Source of the DNA: Amycolatopsis bartoniae
GTDB taxonomy: Bacteria > Actinomycetota > Actinomycetes > Mycobacteriales > Pseudonocardiaceae
Direction of reading: 5' to 3'
Length of the DNA: 64,000 bases
Assembly: GCF_014191255.1 (NCBI RefSeq)
Contig: NZ_JACHWH010000012.1
Span: 1-64,000 of the forward strand
Made by a program: the position numbers and the translations under genes. Of this stretch, positions 40,891 through 57,635 are shown one piece after another; position 1 is the stretch's first letter, and each line of letters begins with the position of its first letter. The notes under the pieces were generated by a model that saw only the letters and a list, made by a program, of their open reading frames with translations, ran no database searches and was not told the origin of the DNA.

Positions 40891-43515
40891 ATGGAAGTGC
40901 AGTCTGCCCAGCAGACGGTGGACGCACCGGTGGAGAAGCACCGGCACAAGCACACGTGGACGGTCGACGAGCTCGGTCCGCGGTACAAGTGGATCGCACT
41001 GTCGAACACCACGCTCGGCATGCTCATGGCCACGATCAACTCCTCGATCGTGCTCATCGCGCTGCCGGACATCTTCCGCGGCATCCACATCAACCCGCTG
41101 GAGTCGAGCAACACCAGCTACCTGCTGTGGATGATGATGGGCTTCCTCGTCGTCACCGCCGTGCTGGTGGTGGGCTTCGGGCGCCTCGGCGACATGTTCG
41201 GCCGCGTCCGGATGTACAACCTGGGGTTCGCCGTGTTCGCGGTCTCCTCGGTGTTGCTGGCCGTGACATGGATGGACGGGGCCACGGCGGCCATCTGGCT
41301 CATCGGCTGGCGTGTCGTGCAGGGCATCGGCGGCGCGTTCCTGATGGCGAACTCCAGCGCGATCCTCACCGACGCCTTCCCCGCCAAGCAGCGCGGGCTC
41401 GCGCTGGGCATCAACGGTGTCGCGGCGATCGCGGGCTCGTTCCTCGGCCTCGTGATCGGCGGCCTGCTCGGGCCGGTGCAGTGGCACCTGGTCTTCCTCG
41501 TGTCCGTGCCGTTCGGCGTGTTCGGCACCATCTGGGCGTTCCTGAAGCTGCGCGACACCAGTGAGCGCCGCCCCGCGAAGATGGACTGGTGGGGCAACCT
41601 GACCTTCGCGGTCGGCCTCATCGCCGTGCTCGTCGGCATCACCTACGGCATCCAGCCCTACGGCAGCCACACCATGGGCTGGACGAGCCCGATGGTGCTG
41701 TCCTGCCTCATCGGCGGCGTGCTCGTGCTGATCATCTTCGCCGTCATCGAGACCAGGGTCGCCAACCCGCTGTTCAACCTGAGCCTGTTCAAGATCCGCG
41801 CGTTCAGCTTCGGCAACGCGGCGAACCTGGCGGCCTCGCTCGGCCGCGGTGGCCTGCAGTTCATGCTGATCATCTGGCTGCAGGGCATCTGGCTGCCCCA
41901 GCACGGCTACAGCTTCGAGCAGACCCCGCTGTGGGCCGGTATCTACATGCTGCCGATGACCGTCGGCTTCCTGGTGGCCGCGCCGGTCTCCGGCGTGATC
42001 ACCGACCGCATCGGCGGCAGGCTGCTGGCCACCGTCGGCATGGTCGCCACCGCGGTCAGCTTCCTGCTCCTGCTGATCCTGCCGGTGGACTTCAACTACT
42101 GGGCCTTCGCGGCGATCCTGCTGCTCAACGGCCTGGGCATGGGCCTGTTCTCCTCGCCGAACCGGGCCGACGTGATGAACAGCCTGCCACCCACCTCGCG
42201 CGGCGCGGGCGCCGGCATGACCGCCACCTTCCAGAACTCGGCGATGGTGCTCTCGATCGGCTTCTTCTTCAGCCTGATGATCGCGGGCCTGTCCGACTCC
42301 CTGCCCGGCACGCTGAACCAGGGCCTCACCGCGCACGGCGTGCCCGCCGACGCCGCCGCCGGGATCGCCGCGCTGCCGCCGGTCGGCGTGCTGTTCGCCG
42401 CGTTCCTCGGCTACAACCCGATCCAGCAGCTGCTGGGCCCGGTGCTCAACCAGCTGCCCGCCGACCAGGCGTCGTTCCTCACCGGCCGCAGCTTCTTCCC
42501 GAACCTGATCTCGGCGCCGTTCTCCGACGGGCTCACCGCCGCGTTCTGGTTCGCGATCATCGTGTGCCTCGTCGGCGCGGTCGCGTCGTGGTTCGTCGGC
42601 AAGCCGAAGCCCCTCGCGGCGACCGTGCCCCAAGAGTCGGTGGGCTCGGAGCTCGCGGCCGAGGGCGGCGAGCTGGTCAACATCCTCCCGGACGACACCC
42701 CCACGGCCGTGCTGCAGCGCCCGCGCCGCGCGGTGGGCAGGCCCGGGGAGATCAGCGGGACCCTGCGCACCAACAGCGGTGCCCCGATCGCCGGCGCGGT
42801 CATCACGGTGACCGGCGCGGACGGCATGCAGGTCGGCCGCGCGCGGGCCGGCCAGACGGGCGCCTACGCGCTCGACGGCGTGCGGCCGGGGACCTACACG
42901 CTGATCGTGACCGCCCCCGGCTTCCAGCCCGCCGCCGCCTCGGTGACGGTCAACGGGCTCGGCGCGGTGCACGACTTCGTGCTCCTCGGCGGCGGGGTCG
43001 TCGCCGGCACCGTGCACCGCTCCGGCGGCACGCCGGTGGAGGGCACCGCGGTGCTCGCCACCGACGGCACCGGGCAGGTCGTCGGCCAGGCCACCACGGC
43101 CCACGACGGCAAGTTCCTGCTCACCGGGCTGCCCGCGGGCGAGGTCACGATCACGGCGAACGTCGACGGGCACCGCCCGCACGCGGTCACCGTGCTCGCC
43201 GGCGCGGCCGAGCCCGCCGACGTGGAACTGCTCGTCGAGGCCGTGGGCGTGCTGCACGGCACGGTCACCGGACCCGACGGGCTCGGCCTGGCCAACGCGA
43301 CCGTGACGATCAGCGACAGCCAGGGGCGCACCGTGGCCACCACGCTCACCGACGACGAGGGGCACTACGAGCTGCACGACCTCGAACCGGGCGAGTACAC
43401 GGTCGTCACGAGCCTGTACGAGCCCGCGGTGCGGCAGGTGGACCTGAACACCGGCGAGACCACGACCGTGGACGTCGACCTCGCCTCCGGCGCCCGGGCG
43501 GACGCGGCGTCATGA
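40891..43515 (+). CDS. DHA2-family MFS transporter fused to carboxypeptidase-regulatory-like domains
   Basis: An 874-residue fusion. Residues about 35-570 form a 14-segment drug:H+ antiporter-2 transporter with motif A ([16 protein letters not shown]), [20 protein letters not shown] and motif C-like [13 protein letters not shown]. After a linker come three tandem beta-sandwich modules of about 85 residues each (about 612-870), each with the carboxypeptidase-regulatory-like pattern [11 protein letters not shown]...[15 protein letters not shown]. Such domains usually sit outside the cell. ATG 40891 or the adjacent GTG codons (40888, 40897) may be the start. The next gene overlaps by four bases and encodes three more modules. 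The substrate is unknown. Confidence 0.85.
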
Positions 43516-47167: not shown

Positions 47168-48398
47168 GGTCCTGATCGTCGGTGCGGGCCAGTCCGGCCT
47201 CCAGCTCGCGCTGACGTTGCGGGAGCACGACTACGACGTCACCGTCATGTCCGCCCGCACGCCGGAGGAGATCCGGCGCGGCAAGGTGATGTCCACGCAG
47301 GCGATGTTCCACACCGCCCTGCAGCACGAACGCGACCACGGGCTGAACCTGTGGGAGGAGCAGACCGTCAACATCGACGGGCTCGGCGTCACGCTCGGGG
47401 ACCCCGAGGGCAACCCGGCGCTGAACTGGTTCGGGCTGCTGGACCACTACGCGCAGTCGGTGGACCAGCGGGTGAAGATGGCGGGCTGGCTGGACCTGCT
47501 GGAGCAGCGCGGCGGCAAGGTCGTCATCCACGGCGTCACCACCGCCGACCTCGACCGGCTGCCCGAGCACTACGACCTGGTGATCGTGGCCGCGGGCAAG
47601 GGCGAGCTGGTGCAGCTGTTCGACCGCGACCCGTCGCGTTCGCCGTACACGAAGCCGCAGCGCGCGCTGTCGCTGGTGTACGCGCACGGCGTGGGCCGAA
47701 GGCCCGAGCACCCGGAGCACGCGGGCGTGCGGTTCAACATCGCGCCCGGGGTCGGTGAGCTGTTCATGATCCCGGCGTTCACGCTGAGCGGCAACTGCGA
47801 CATCCTGTTCTTCGAAGGGATTCCGGGCGGTCCGCTGGACTGCTTCGCCGACCAGCCCGAGCCCGGCGAGTTCTTCGACCGGCTCCTTTCGCTGATCCGC
47901 CAGTACTTCCCGTGGGAGTACGAGCGCTGCCGCGGGGCGGAGCTGACCGACTCGAAGGCGACGCTCGCCGGCGGGTACACCCCCGTGGTGCGCCATCCGG
48001 TGGGCGAGCTGCCGTCGGGCGCGGCCGTGCTCGGGATGGCCGACGTGGTAGTGGCCAACGACCCGATCACCGGGCAGGGCTCCAACAACGCGTCGAAGTG
48101 CGCGGCGTCCTATTTGGACAGCATTCTGTCCCACGGGGACAAGCCGTTCGACCGCGCGTGGATGCAGGCCACGTTCGACCGCTACTGGGACGATGCCCAG
48201 TGGGCCACGGTCTGGACCAACGCGATGCTCCAGCCGCCGCCCCCGCACGTGCAGCAGATCCTCGGTGCGGCGCAGGCGAACCCCGTGGTGGCACGGCGGT
48301 TCGTCAACGGCTTCTCCGACCCCAGCGACTACCGGCACTGGCTGCTGGACCCGGCGAAGACCGAGGAGTACCTGGCGAGCGTGAGCAGCTCTTCCTGA
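47160..48398 (+). CDS. StyA-type FAD-dependent monooxygenase, copy 1
   Basis: A 412-residue flavoprotein of the styrene/indole monooxygenase oxygenase family. The FAD-binding GxGxxG is VGAGQSGLQLAL (residues 7-18), the second dinucleotide region is VIVAAGKGELVQLFDRDPSRSP, and a third FAD motif is GMADVVVANDPITGQGSNNA. No FMN/FAD reductase (StyB) gene is adjacent, so reduced flavin must come from elsewhere. It starts inside the end of the GTPase gene. It is a close paralogue of the next gene. In Streptomyces, conservons are often followed by cytochrome P450 genes; here the oxidase position holds this enzyme. Confidence 0.86.
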   Translation: MRKVLIVGAGQSGLQLALTLREHDYDVTVMSARTPEEIRRGKVMSTQAMFHTALQHERDHGLNLWEEQTVNIDGLGVTLGDPEGNPALNWFGLLDHYAQSVDQRVKMAGWLDLLEQRGGKVVIHGVTTADLDRLPEHYDLVIVAAGKGELVQLFDRDPSRSPYTKPQRALSLVYAHGVGRRPEHPEHAGVRFNIAPGVGELFMIPAFTLSGNCDILFFEGIPGGPLDCFADQPEPGEFFDRLLSLIRQYFPWEYERCRGAELTDSKATLAGGYTPVVRHPVGELPSGAAVLGMADVVVANDPITGQGSNNASKCAASYLDSILSHGDKPFDRAWMQATFDRYWDDAQWATVWTNAMLQPPPPHVQQILGAAQANPVVARRFVNGFSDPSDYRHWLLDPAKTEEYLASVSSSS

Positions 48399-53839: not shown

Positions 53840-54373
53840 GTGGCGAGACCCAGCAGCACAGTGGTGGTCGTGGCGGGCGAAGGCGCGGCGGAGATCCTGC
53901 CGCGGCTGGACGGGCTGGCGAACGTCCGCGCCGCGCCCGCCGGGAACGCCGAGGACGCGAGCCGCCTAGTGGCGCAGTCGCACGCCGCGTACGTGGTGCA
54001 CGACGCCGACCCGCTGGCGGACGTCGCGGCGGCGTGGGCGGGGTTCTTCGACCGGCAGGACCCGGCGGGCACGCTGGAGGTCGCGGTCGAGGCCGCGCTT
54101 GCCGGGCTGCGGTGGGGAACCGTGCAGCTACCGGACTACTACGTCGTGCTCGACCCGGAATCCCTTCCGGCGACGCGGAAACACTGGTGGCTCGGCGTGC
54201 TCGCGGGTGTCTCCCCGAGCCGCGTGATCCCGGCGCGGGCGAGCGCGGGCGCGGTGGCGGACGTGCTGTCGCGGCTGCCGTCGGGACGGTGGTGGCCGGA
54301 GCCGCCGGACGAGTGGCTGCGGGGACTGGGCCGGGCGGTGCCGGATCGTGTGGGCGTACCGGGCTCCGCCTGA
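53840..54373 (+). CDS. Hypothetical actinobacterial protein
   Basis: A 177-residue protein. It begins with a Rossmann-like STVVVVAGEGAAEILPRLDGLANVRAAPAGN and later has GFFDRQDPAGTLEVAVEAALAGL, with a Trp-rich C-terminus (GRWWPEPPDEWLRGLG). I do not recognise a domain and see no catalytic motif. TAAACT is six bases before GTG 53840, so it has a likely leaderless promoter of its own despite the closeness of the MoaD-like gene. Codon use is ordinary for the window. Confidence 0.7.
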   Translation: MARPSSTVVVVAGEGAAEILPRLDGLANVRAAPAGNAEDASRLVAQSHAAYVVHDADPLADVAAAWAGFFDRQDPAGTLEVAVEAALAGLRWGTVQLPDYYVVLDPESLPATRKHWWLGVLAGVSPSRVIPARASAGAVADVLSRLPSGRWWPEPPDEWLRGLGRAVPDRVGVPGSA

Positions 54374-54458
54374 GGTTTGTACGCGTTTTGTGCGGGCGGT
54401 CCCGACGATGAGGCCGCCCGGGGGAACCTCCCGGGCCTTTCCACGAAGGGATCCCGCT

Positions 54459-55943
54459 ATGAGACTCCGGACCGTGGCCGGCGCGTGCGTCGCGCTGCTG
54501 GCCCCGTTCGTCACCCTGGCCGCCCCGGCGGCGCCCGCGCAGGCGGCGGTGTCGAACACCGTGATCTTCCAGGAGAACACCGACGGGCACGACTGCTATC
54601 GCATCCCGTCCATCGTGAAGGCGAAGAACGGCGATCTCCTCGCGTTCGCCGAGGCCCGCAACGGCGGTGCGAGCTTCTGCAACGACCTGGGCGAGATCGA
54701 CCTGGTCATGAAGCGGTCCACCGACGGCGGCAAGACGTGGGGCGCGCAGCAGACGGTCATCAAGGCGAACGGCGACACCAAGGGCAACCCGGCCCCGATC
54801 GTGATCCCGTCGACGGGCCGGATCGTGCTGCTGTCGACGATGCAGTGCTACACGAACCCGTCGTGCGGCCGGATTCCGCGCGTGCAGTGGAGTGACGACA
54901 ACGGCGCGACGTGGAACGCGCCGAAGGTCCTGACCACCGAGCTGGGTTTCGCGTCGGCACCCGGCTGGCTGGCGACGGGCCCGGCGCACGGCCTGGTGCT
55001 CACCCGGGGGGAGCACGCAGGGCGGCTGGTCGCCGGGATGAGCTACAAGATCGGCTCGCAGAACTCGGGTTCGATCATCTACAGCGACGACCAGGGCGTG
55101 ACGTGGCACCGCGGGGCGACGGACTCCCCGGCCACCACGGCGCTGAACCCGCAGGAGATCAGCCTCGTCGAACTGGCCGACGGCCGCATCTACGCGGCGG
55201 CGCGCAATGACGCCAACGACGACAACAAGTGCCTCGACGACGGCACGAAGAACCGGGCGTACGCCATCAGTTCCGATGGTGGTGCCACGTTCTCGCAGAA
55301 GTTCACCTACGAGCCGGACCTGATCACGCCGGTCGTGCAGAGCTCGGTGGTGCGGATGAGCGCGACCGACCAGGGCGGGGCGTACGACCGGATCCTGTTC
55401 GCCGGTCCGTCCACTTGCGACCGTCGCAAGGAGCTGGTGGTGCACTCGTCGTTCGACGAAGGCGGGAACTGGACGAGCAAGGGCAGCAGCGTCCTGGTGT
55501 GGGACCAGGATGCGGCATACTCGGACATGGTGCAGCTGAGCCAAAGTTCGGTCGGCGTGATGTACGAGGCGGGCCCCGAGTACAACGCGAGCGCCTCCAT
55601 CCGGTATTCGGTGGTGACGGAAGCGATGCTGGGCGCCCCGGCCTGCGGGGCGGGTTACAGTGTGATCGACCAGCAGGCCCTGGGCACGGCGGGCACGGTT
55701 TACCTGTCCTACAACGCTTCGACGGGCAAGAACTGCGTGTCCACGATGAAGAAGACGAGTGTCGGTACGCCGAGCGCCACGTCAGCGTTCCTCCAGGTCG
55801 AGGACGGTACGCGCGTCACGGACTCGGGCAACTTCTCCTACTACGCGGGCCCGGTGACCGCCGGCGCGGCCGGCAAGTGCGTCCAATGGGGCGGCAGCGC
55901 AGGAACGAACAGCTACACCAGCCCAATGGAACACTGCGGCTAA
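54459..55943 (+). CDS. Secreted exo-alpha-sialidase (GH33)
   Basis: A 494-residue secreted sialidase. A signal peptide (about 30 residues, ending AQAA) precedes a six-bladed propeller. The RIP motif is in CYRIPSIVKA and four Asp boxes are visible (STDGGKTW, SDDNGATW, SDDQGVTW, SSDGGATF). Arg residues of the triad (RIP, RRKEL region) and an acidic/tyrosine pair are expected from family knowledge. It should release terminal sialic acids outside the cell. The last 90 residues may form a small extra beta domain. ATG 54459 follows GAAGGGA. A strong terminator follows. Confidence 0.9.
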   Translation: MRLRTVAGACVALLAPFVTLAAPAAPAQAAVSNTVIFQENTDGHDCYRIPSIVKAKNGDLLAFAEARNGGASFCNDLGEIDLVMKRSTDGGKTWGAQQTVIKANGDTKGNPAPIVIPSTGRIVLLSTMQCYTNPSCGRIPRVQWSDDNGATWNAPKVLTTELGFASAPGWLATGPAHGLVLTRGEHAGRLVAGMSYKIGSQNSGSIIYSDDQGVTWHRGATDSPATTALNPQEISLVELADGRIYAAARNDANDDNKCLDDGTKNRAYAISSDGGATFSQKFTYEPDLITPVVQSSVVRMSATDQGGAYDRILFAGPSTCDRRKELVVHSSFDEGGNWTSKGSSVLVWDQDAAYSDMVQLSQSSVGVMYEAGPEYNASASIRYSVVTEAMLGAPACGAGYSVIDQQALGTAGTVYLSYNASTGKNCVSTMKKTSVGTPSATSAFLQVEDGTRVTDSGNFSYYAGPVTAGAAGKCVQWGGSAGTNSYTSPMEHCG

Positions 55944-55989: not shown

Positions 55990-56106
55990 CCCTTTCACCC
56001 CATCTGGCACCCGGCAACGCGATAACCCTGACCACTACCCAGACCTCCCCCGTCCCCGATCCCCAGCCGCCTTAGCAGTTGACTCGCCGTGATGCTCCTA
56101 TGGTTG

Positions 56107-57213
56107 TCAAGGGGTGTTTGTGCTGGTGGTGGGGTTGGTGAGGGTGTTGTAGATTTCGCGGGCGATGTAGCGTTTGAGGCAGCGGATGATGTCTTTGTTG
56201 GTGAGTCCTTGGTGGGTGCGGCGTTGTTGGTAGTCGCGGGTGCGGGGGTCCCAGCGCAGTCGGGATAGCGTGATGCGGTAGAGGGCGGCGTTGGCTTGGC
56301 GGTCGCCGCCGCGGTTGAGTCGGTGCCGGTGGGTGTGTCCGGAGGAGGCGGGGATCGGGGCTACTCCGCAGAGATGGGCGAACGCGGCTTCTGAGTGCAG
56401 GCGGTCGGGGTTATCCCCGGCGGTGACCAGCAACTGGCCCGCGCAGTCCGGGCCGACTCCCGGTAGCTGCAGCAAAGCGGGGTTGATCCGTTCCACCAGA
56501 GCGGTCGCGACCTGGTCCAGTGCGGTGATCTCACCGCAGAGATGGTGATGACGGCGAGCGAGGTGATACAACGCCAGCCGGGTCGCTGTGGCGGGGTCGC
56601 CGATGTGGGCGGGGTCGGTCAGCTGCGCTGGATCCTCTCCGGCGCAGACGGCGATCACGCGGGCGGGGGCCAGTCCCCGCAGCTGGCTGCGCAGTGGTTC
56701 TGGGGCGGTGACCAGCAGCGTGTGGATCTGGTTGAGCACGATCGCGCGAGCAGCCACCGCCGAGCGGCGCGCCACCCGCACCGCCCGCAACGCTTCGGTC
56801 GCGCCGGCCCGGTCCTTCGGTGTGCTGACCCGGGTACCGTCCTGCGACAGGACCGCACGGGCGGCGTTTTCGGCGTCGAACGGATCAGACTTCCCGCGGA
56901 CGCGCCGGGCACGCCGGTCCGGGCGGGCGACCTCCAGCACGGTGATTCCGTGACCGGCCAGAGAGCGGGCCAGGCCGGCGCCATAGGCACCGGTGCCTTC
57001 CACCCCCACCCGCGACAGCGGCCCGAATCCCCGCAACCACGCCAGCACCCGCGCATAACCGTCCTGCGTCGCGGGAAACTCCGCCGTGCCCAGCAACCGC
57101 CCCCGCGCATCCAGCACCGCCGCGGTGTGGGTATCACGATGGGTGTCCACCCCGCCCACCACACCGCCACCGCTGTCATCCATCGCCGACTGTGTCATCG
57201 TGGTCATGGCCAT
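56107..57213 (-). CDS. IS110-family DEDD transposase
   Basis: A 368-residue recombinase. The N-terminal RuvC-like DEDD domain has the acidic residues in GGVDTHRDTHTAAV, GVEGTGAYG and GKSDPFDAENAARA. The C-terminal Transposase_20 domain has LLQLPGVGPDCAGQLLVTAGD and GVAPIPASSGHTHRHRLNRGGDRQANAALYRI, which includes the conserved serine of IS110 recombinases. The stop codon lies within the GTCAAGGG junction. ATG 57213 (or 57207) is the family-like start. The protein looks intact, so the element may be active. Confidence 0.93.
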   Translation of the reverse strand: MAMTTMTQSAMDDSGGGVVGGVDTHRDTHTAAVLDARGRLLGTAEFPATQDGYARVLAWLRGFGPLSRVGVEGTGAYGAGLARSLAGHGITVLEVARPDRRARRVRGKSDPFDAENAARAVLSQDGTRVSTPKDRAGATEALRAVRVARRSAVAARAIVLNQIHTLLVTAPEPLRSQLRGLAPARVIAVCAGEDPAQLTDPAHIGDPATATRLALYHLARRHHHLCGEITALDQVATALVERINPALLQLPGVGPDCAGQLLVTAGDNPDRLHSEAAFAHLCGVAPIPASSGHTHRHRLNRGGDRQANAALYRITLSRLRWDPRTRDYQQRRTHQGLTNKDIIRCLKRYIAREIYNTLTNPTTSTNTP

Positions 57214-57442
57214 CCTGTTCTCCAGCAGGGCATGGGGCCACGCACACCGGCGGGGTGGTCGGACAGGACAATGACGGGTCGCCTGCGGCAACAGGCTCCT
57301 ATGAAGTCACACCACCCCGCACGGTGCACGCGCGTGAACACCCACCCAGGACGGGACAAATCCCAGCCAGGACACCACCATCAGTCAGTCAAGGGTCGGG
57401 TCACCACCCCAGACAGGCGATCACACACCCATCATCCTCACT
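57214..57442 (-). ncRNA. Predicted bridge RNA region of the IS110 element
   Basis: The 229 non-coding bases upstream of the transposase are where IS110-group elements encode the structured bridge RNA. Pairings seen: CGGGGTGGT (57251-57259) with ACCACCCCG (57311-57319), enclosing GCCTG-CGGCAA-CAGGC (57281-57296). The stretch at 57388-57398 (GTCAAGGGTCG) is identical over 11 bases to the right-hand insertion junction at 57443-57453, as a target guide would be. RNA ends cannot be set from sequence alone. Confidence 0.6.
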
Positions 57443-57491
57443 GTCAAGGGTCGCGCAGCGATCGCGAAGCGACGCCGAAGGCGCCCTTGAC
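57443..57491. repeat. 49-base cloverleaf-like palindromic element
   Basis: GTCAAGGG (57443-57450) pairs with CCCTTGAC (57484-57491). Between them are exactly three 11-base hairpins with no spare base: TCGC-GCA-GCGA (57451-57461), TCGC-GAA-GCGA (57462-57472) and CGCC-GAA-GGCG (57473-57483). All bases but the three triloops can pair, a closed four-way junction. It resembles REP-type elements, which IS110 relatives are known to target. It is probably repeated in the genome (inference). Confidence 0.85.
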
Positions 57492-57635
57492 GCGGTGGGG
57501 CAACTGTTGAACGCTCGGCGGGAGGGGTGGGGGTGGTCGGGTGAGGAGGGCGGCCACGCCCGGCCCACAACGGGCGACCCACCGTGGGACGAAAGACAAG
57601 AGATCAAAGAGCGGGCAGGCTCCAGGATGAGCCCG

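What the first reader, a model, noticed from the sequence alone, without database searches (positions are those of the whole stretch)
57214..57453. IS110 5' segment carries an 11-base match to its own insertion site, as a bridge-RNA target guide would
IS110-family recombinases are guided by a structured bridge RNA encoded in the element's non-coding end. Here the 229 bases upstream of an intact transposase contain a 9-base-pair stem (57251-57259 with 57311-57319) enclosing a smaller hairpin, and GTCAAGGGTCG at 57388-57398 is identical to the right junction at 57443-57453. The transcript from the transposase strand would be complementary to the target's plus strand. The element has intact DEDD motifs and the conserved serine, so it may be an active, programmable recombinase.
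Basis: partly seen in the sequence, partly recalled or inferred. Interest (0 to 1): 0.72.

Follow-up and report, generated by a model that had tools for sequence, protein, structure and literature searches.

The report
RNA-guided jumping gene targeting genomic repeats
This is an IS110-type jumping gene whose own non-coding end appears to encode a bridge RNA that steers it to a hairpin-like repeat scattered through its host genome; the mechanism is known, but this is a clean natural example in a group whose guides often seem to aim at harmless places.

Summary
In detail: 57388-57398 repeats 57443-57453 exactly and the 9-bp stem exists. The element is an IS110-group insertion sequence at 56092-57443 (one core included), its ends fixed by uninterrupted copies of the same repeat. 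The 11-mer is its left target guide: relatives at other targets carry those targets' bases at the same RNA position (7.97 of 9 bases match; 3.99 after shuffling; 0 of 10,000 shuffles as high; 29 guide pairs). A right target guide and two donor guides are also present and vary with target or ends. The target is a palindromic repeat whose 21-bp part occurs 27 times exactly in this genome; a distantly related IS110 uses another position of it. This is a new member of a known kind. Two side results may be new: guides aimed at stop codons, other transposases or palindromes, and donor and target cores that differ at the second base in 42 of 46 sites. Transcription and activity were not tested.

The parts
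56092..57443 (-). IS110-group element, one copy of the 2-bp core included (1,352 bp)
   Evidence: Junctions compared with uninterrupted repeat copies and end motifs of multi-copy relatives
56107..57213 (-). Transposase (DEDD/serine recombinase); start codon inferred (ATG at 57213 or 57207)
   Evidence: ORF, Pfam, alignment to IS621 chain 8wt6_A
57224..57443 (-). Predicted bridge RNA region (left end)
   Evidence: Fold, conserved structure; covariance model match 130.2 bits, but the window copy is itself in the model
57333..57425 (-). Target-binding arm: stem 57400-57425 with 57333-57357
   Evidence: helix 1, 75.7% of cells paired
57388..57398 (-).
57362..57368 (-). Right target guide, RNA GGCUGGG; 4 of 7 bases match this copy's own site
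57240..57331 (-).
57295..57303 (-). Left donor guide, RNA CAUAGGAGC, same sequence as the right end
57269..57274 (-). Right donor guide, RNA UCAUUG, complementary to the left terminus CAGTGA with one G-U pair
57430..57443 (-). Left terminus with core (CA GTGAGGATGATG); core 57442-57443
56090..56102 (-). Right terminus with core (CATAGGAGCAT CA); core 56090-56091
57443..57453 (-). Left target in the flank (CGACCCTTGAC, ends with the core C)
56083..56091 (-). Right target in the flank (CA CGGCGAG, begins with the core)
56105..56110 (-). -35-like TTGACA in the right end (overlaps the stop codon); joins the -10 in the circle
57434..57439 (-). -10-like GAGGAT in the left end, 17 bp from TTGACA in the joined circle
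56038..56091 (.). Host palindromic repeat, left part of the interrupted copy
57442..57510 (.). Host palindromic repeat, right part of the interrupted copy

Best explanation
This is an IS110-group insertion sequence that moves as a circle. In the circle its right end (TTGACA) and left end (GAGGAT) would form a promoter that makes a roughly 200-nt bridge RNA from the left end. One loop of that RNA pairs with the host repeat: the left target guide with the bottom strand, the right target guide with the top strand. The other loop pairs with the element's own joined ends. The DEDD/serine recombinase then exchanges strands next to the core C. Shown here from sequence: the ends, the guides, their joint variation with target and donor ends, the conserved fold and the catalytic residues. 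Inferred from IS621: circle, transcript, pairing inside the protein complex, and chemistry.
For: Left guide against target 7.97 of 9 bases versus 3.99 shuffled, right guide 4.89 of 7 versus 2.63, each 0 of 10,000 shuffles as high. 4 of 5 later-tested loci match 8-9 of 9. Right-end variant agrees with the donor loop in 30 of 31 distinct left ends that have a right end. The left-terminus second base pairs with the donor loop in 32 of 32 (A-U 21, U-A 11). Conserved structure: 69.3% of cells paired versus 33.6-49.9% when slid. Catalytic residues align with IS621. Promoter-like circle junction. A distantly related IS110 in the same genome has a guide for its own position in the same repeat.
Against: No transcript or activity is shown. 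The right target guide of this copy matches only 4 of 7 bases at its site, and it is the only copy found in its genome, so it could be inactive. L016 does not fit (4 of 9). The guide-finding motifs were chosen after I had seen the matches.
Confidence: 0.93

Rival explanations
1. The 11-base match is chance, or target DNA captured in the element at insertion, and the protein alone reads the site.
For: In the window alone there is one 11-base match, and the right guide fits weakly (4 of 7).
Against: The same RNA position carries each relative's own target in other elements, and offset controls fall to 1.1-4.5 of 9 matches (the 4.5 is at +4, where the following TGAC imitates the guide end). Several copies of one element at different sites share one guide, so the guide is not captured anew at each insertion.
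Confidence: 0.02
2. The left end is mainly a structured leader that controls transposase expression, not a targeting RNA.
For: It lies directly upstream of the gene and is structured. The abstract of PMC8450116, seen in a search listing only, reports two small RNAs and the 5'-leader structure controlling the ISPpu9 transposase.
Against: A leader role alone does not explain loops that follow the flanking target and the element's own ends. Both roles could coexist.
Confidence: 0.03
3. It is a bridge-RNA element by descent, but this copy is a dead or weakened relic.
For: Single copy in its genome; right guide mismatched at its own site; the second base of its right donor pairing is a G-U pair.
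Against: Open reading frame, catalytic residues, both ends and all four guide regions are intact. With core CC its right guide fits the repeat better, and 16 of the 25 near-perfect sites in the genome have CC (counted).
Confidence: 0.25

Closest known systems
IS621 of E. coli (IS110 group) and its bridge RNA (PMC11208160, PMC11208158; passages read)
   Same: DEDD/serine recombinase; long structured left end and short right end; target loop first, donor loop second; 5' side of each loop pairs with the bottom strand and 3' side with the top strand; promoter formed at the joined ends; target in an extragenic palindromic repeat.
   Different: Core here is CA in the donor and usually shares only its C with the target (42 of 46 clade sites differ at the second base); IS621 uses CT. 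The host is an actinomycete with an unrelated repeat. Sequence similarity to IS621 is weak (E 4.9e-08).
seekRNA elements of the IS110 and IS1111 families, e.g. ISEc21 (PMC11187229; passages and section 13 read)
   Same: Upstream non-coding region in the IS110 type, RNA matching both strands of the target, natural re-aiming of guides between relatives.
   Different: No experimental RNA or transposition here. The passages and section 13 that I read do not mention stop codons or transposase motifs as targets.
REP-targeting IS110 elements ISPpu9, ISPpu10, ISPa11, ISRm19 (PMC1525189; passages read)
   Same: Insertion into abundant palindromic extragenic sequences, several IS110 elements per host.
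   Different: That study covers other hosts and predates bridge RNAs. Here two distantly related IS110 lineages in one actinomycete genome use different positions of one repeat, each with its own guide.
IS900 of Mycobacterium avium subsp. paratuberculosis (PMC8141618; passages read)
   Same: IS110 family in an actinobacterium; insertions mostly outside coding sequences.
   Different: Its start-codon preference is recalled, not seen in the passages; stop-codon sites are what several relatives of the window element use.

Membership tests
IS110 family | Pfam DEDD_Tnp_IS110 plus Transposase_20 (IS116/IS110/IS902) domains | tested here: met
   78.6 and 68.8 bits, above cut-offs 29 and 21.3
IS110 family | Catalytic D, E, D, D and serine as in IS621 (D11, E60, D102, D105, S241) | tested here: met
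   Aligned to chain 8wt6_A; residue roles from passages of PMC11208158
IS110 group (not IS1111) | Long non-coding left end upstream of the gene, short right end | tested here: met
   228 bp (57214-57441) versus 15 bp (56092-56106); definition from passages of PMC11208160
IS110 family | No target duplication beyond a short core | tested here: met
   TG is the only sequence shared by both junctions and the uninterrupted form
Bridge-RNA system | Structured RNA with a target loop followed by a donor loop | tested here: met
   By prediction and joint variation only
[quoted passage not shown]
   9 of 9 in the window (11 contiguous); 7.97 of 9 in the clade
[quoted passage not shown]
   Clade: 4.89 of 7 versus 2.63 shuffled, met. 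This copy: 4 of 7
Bridge-RNA system | Donor guides match the element's own ends | tested here: met
   CAUAGGAGC and UCAUUG in the window; clade agreement 30 of 31 and 32 of 32
Bridge-RNA system | Promoter formed across the joined right and left ends | tested here: met
   By consensus match only: TTGACA-17-GAGGAT in the window; 25 of 30 distinct junctions with at least 4 of 6 at the -10
IS621-like core | CT core shared by donor and target | tested here: not met
   CA in the window; donor and target second base differ in 42 of 46 sites of the clade
Bridge-RNA system | Transcribed RNA bound by the recombinase; RNA-dependent recombination | not testable with these tools
   Needs RNA sequencing and biochemistry
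Rfam RNA families | Match to a curated family at its gathering score | tested here: not met
   0 matches in the window, both strands

The most novel reading that the evidence does not exclude
This IS110 clade has repeatedly re-aimed its bridge RNA at addresses that cost the host little: palindromic intergenic repeats, the TGA stop codon at gene ends, and codons of conserved motifs in rival transposases. It also recombines with a core of which donor and target need share only one base, the second base staying donor-like at the left junction and target-like at the right.
Probability: 0.5. Interest if true: 0.68.

Novelty: new member of a known kind. Interest (0 to 1): 0.52.

Why it matters
Bridge recombinases are programmable tools, and natural guide-target pairs show what the guides tolerate. 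This clade gives 29 distinct natural guide pairs with mapped ends, a looser core rule that can be tested, and a view of which addresses selection has favoured. The host genome itself is a natural experiment: two distantly related IS110 lineages use one repeat through different guides.

Tried and rejected
Rfam at gathering scores found nothing in the window. RNAalifold on the 32-sequence alignment missed the donor stem and instead paired the left terminus with the right donor guide; I therefore counted a structure taken from the window's own fold, which leans towards that sequence. The covariance model also gave three weak matches elsewhere in the window, at 18.7, 14.4 and 8.8 bits (E 0.0008, 0.011, 0.35); I took them for chance and did not study them. 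A crude ORF scan of whether the repeat lies between convergent genes was not decisive (10 convergent, 2 divergent, 14 tandem, 2 unassigned of 28), and I make no claim. A pattern count of the donor core base gave 31 of 34 in agreement; for the other three (L066, L099, L037) the printed tails show that the pattern had caught an earlier stretch, and on reading they agree.

Selection of loci. 49 loci were picked by hand from those with a transposase hit. Left out were second records of one copy and loci whose left end did not fit the end pattern C[AT]GTGA or looked uncertain (among them L010, L014, L015, L016, L019, L021, L022, L027, L068, L076, L111, L114, L118). The guide-finding patterns were written after I had seen the matches, so they are not blind; the shuffling test does not depend on that. 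Five further loci were tested afterwards: L114, L118, L068 and L146 fit, L016 does not; L114 and L118 share one guide. The right-guide test used 26 of 29 guide pairs, since three lack a right end; its outermost position shows no joint variation (0.25 versus 0.31). Because the end pattern demands A or T after the core C, it cannot find copies whose left base came from the target; the multi-copy sets found by protein all show A or T there where a left end exists (L111 has none).

Stop-codon class. 19 of 49 loci have a stop triplet before the core. Of the 17 with nTGAC and enough sequence, 12 look like gene ends and 5 do not (L066, L110, L011, L099, L018); L080 and L083 have TAAC and were not counted. 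Several of the 12 are copies of one element, so the binomial p-value overstates the evidence. The control is CTGAC sites in the fetched flanks, not in whole genomes.

Transposase class. The ten peptides were chosen because a motif was suspected, so 8 hits of 10 is not a rate. L122 (left flank) and L094 had no Pfam hit. L114 and L118 looked like transposase targets by eye, and no family search was made for them. Names of IS families are recalled.

Novelty searches. (IS110 or bridge RNA with stop codon, transposase gene, target specificity, natural targets) listed nothing that I recognised on these target classes, going by titles and abstract openings; only open-licence PMC papers are held and only the top rows are listed.

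Full report
What is there. The transposase gene lies on the minus strand (56107-57213, start inferred). It has both IS110 Pfam domains, and the five residues that matter in IS621 are identical in the alignment to chain 8wt6_A (residue roles from passages of PMC11208158). The genome (7.76 Mb, 23 contigs) gave one full-length match to the element and one protein match at E 1e-60 or better. Its family is probably Pseudonocardiaceae, because contig C1 of a same-family genome, G336, has exactly the length of a Pseudonocardia parietis contig.

Ends. The right flank GTCAAGGGTCGCGCAGCGATC occurs 27 times exactly in the genome, the window's own included, inside a longer imperfect palindrome. In the stretches printed, 21 of the 27 run on uninterrupted, five are interrupted by another IS110 and one by this element. 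The left junction CTCGCCG[TG]ATGCTCC and the right junction CATCCTCAC[TG]TCAAGGG share TG with the uninterrupted form CTCGCCGTGTCAAGGG. The element is therefore 56092-57443 with the core CA in transposase orientation. Multi-copy relatives in seven genomes (G336, G150, G104, G283, G213, G318, G016) show the same end motifs, C[AT]GTGA on the left and [CTA]ATAGG[AG]GCATC on the right; one G336 copy, L111, lacks the left end.

The 11-mer. In transposase orientation the target reads CGACCCTTGA-CA-CGGCGAG, and the RNA strand carries CGACCCUUGAC. I located guides by flanking motifs, written after seeing the first matches, and compared them with each element's own flanks. Over 29 distinct guide pairs from 49 loci the left guide matches 7.97 of 9 bases; shuffling targets among guides gives 3.99 (sd 0.29) and 0 of 10,000 shuffles reach the observed value. 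The right guide matches 4.89 of 7 against 2.63 (26 pairs, 0 of 10,000). All left-guide positions exceed the mismatched pairing except the core C, which is nearly constant (0.86 in both); on the right, the outermost position and the core show nothing. Of five loci tested afterwards four match 8-9 of 9, and L016 matches 4 of 9 with uncertain ends. The close relative in G011 keeps the window's left guide; its left and right ends lie on different contigs, and their flanks look like the same repeat family (three copies of the 22-mer with two mismatches in G011).

Right guide of this copy. GGCUGGG matches 4 of 7 bases at its own site. Allowing a G-U pair it fits CCCGGC, the repeat form with core CC. 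Of 25 sites in the genome within one mismatch of CGACCCTTGACMCGGCGAG, 16 have CC and 9 have CA (counted from the list). This copy may sit in a second-choice site, or its guide has drifted.

Donor guides. The second loop carries CAUAGGAGC, the sequence of the right end. Among 34 distinct left ends, 31 have a mapped right end, and in 30 of these the AGGAG or AGGGG form agrees between loop and end; L081 disagrees. The left terminus is complementary to the 3' side of this loop: its variable second base pairs as A-U in 21 and U-A in 11 of 32 sequences, none broken.

Fold. The window RNA folds into two long arms (z -2.93). On 32 aligned sequences this structure has 69.3% of cells paired against 33.6-49.9% when slid, and 154 cells changed on both sides against a shuffled mean of 73. 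A covariance model built from these sequences finds L114, L118, L068 and L016, which were not in it, at 84.5-127.5 bits, and the distantly related IS110 of the same genome at 32.5 bits; three weak matches elsewhere in the window (at most 18.7 bits) look like chance.

Promoter. Joining right and left ends as in a circle gives TTGACA-17-GAGGAT. Of 30 distinct junctions 25 have TTGACN with at least 4 of 6 matches to a -10 consensus at spacing 17 or 18, and 29 have at least 3 at spacing 16-18; other spacings reach 0-7 junctions. IS621 also forms a promoter there (passages of PMC11208160). The -10 form TAGGAT used beside TATAAT is recalled.

Same repeat, two guides. Five of the 27 repeat copies carry another IS110, with 34% amino-acid identity to the window's transposase, inserted at GTCAAGGGCGC-CT-TCGGCGTC, another position of the repeat. 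Its left end contains TCAAGGGCGC, ten bases of its own left target. A sixth copy of it sits elsewhere, at a partly similar sequence (L109).

Wider pattern, beyond the finding. Stop codons: in 12 of 17 sites whose left target ends in nTGA-C the TGA closes a coding-like frame of at least 100 codons; among control CTGAC sites in the fetched flanks it is 12 of 207 (copies of one element are not independent). Rival transposases: flank peptides, each side apart, hit rve, HTH_Tnp_4, DDE_Tnp_4, DDE_3, DDE_Tnp_1 or Transposase_mut in 8 of 10 chosen peptides, that is in 7 of 9 loci, with the insertion at NGKV|ER, YSG|KHK, DN|YG, CYD|NAMME, RYD|K and SYFPD|W. Palindromes: this element, the sibling, and by eye the targets of G213 and G318. 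Three paper searches listed nothing recognisable on these classes, in a library without subscription papers or preprints.

Core. At 42 of 46 sites the base after the core C differs between the left junction and the right junction, unlike the CT shared by donor and target in IS621 (passages). The left base is constant among copies of one element and the right base follows the target. I read this as an effective core of one base, or as directional repair of the second base; neither is tested.

Verdict. The system is a new member of the IS110 bridge-RNA kind. What may be new is the choice of addresses in this clade and the looser core.

Noticed in passing
L104-L108 (own genome, contigs C1, C2, C8): A distantly related IS110 (34% identity) sits at another position of the same palindromic repeat and carries TCAAGGGCGC, matching its own left target; a further copy, L109, lies elsewhere.
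   Followed up: partly
Left junctions of L081, L112, L113, L115, L116, L117, L013, L121, L017, L096, L091, L020: Relatives inserted directly after the TGA stop codon of a coding-like frame, with guides that include CTGAC in most of them: 12 of 17 sites versus 12 of 207 control sites.
   Followed up: partly
Flanks of L071, L073, L037, L089, L077, L136, L119: Relatives inserted within conserved motif codons of other transposases (Pfam hits in flanks); L097, L098 and L122 look alike by their peptides, L122's left flank without a Pfam hit.
   Followed up: partly
46 insertion sites of the clade: The base after the core C differs between left and right junction in 42 of 46 sites.
   Followed up: partly
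56105-56113: The right end itself contains CCCTTGACA, close to the element's own left target ACCCTTGAC, so the guide could weakly match its own end (read; no test made).
   Followed up: no
54348-55943 (+): The gene before the interrupted repeat looks like a secreted sialidase, by eye from the translation; no family search was made.
   Followed up: no
47209-47289 and 42239-42329 (+): Weak matches to the bridge-RNA model (18.7 and 14.4 bits), much shorter than the model; probably chance.
   Followed up: no
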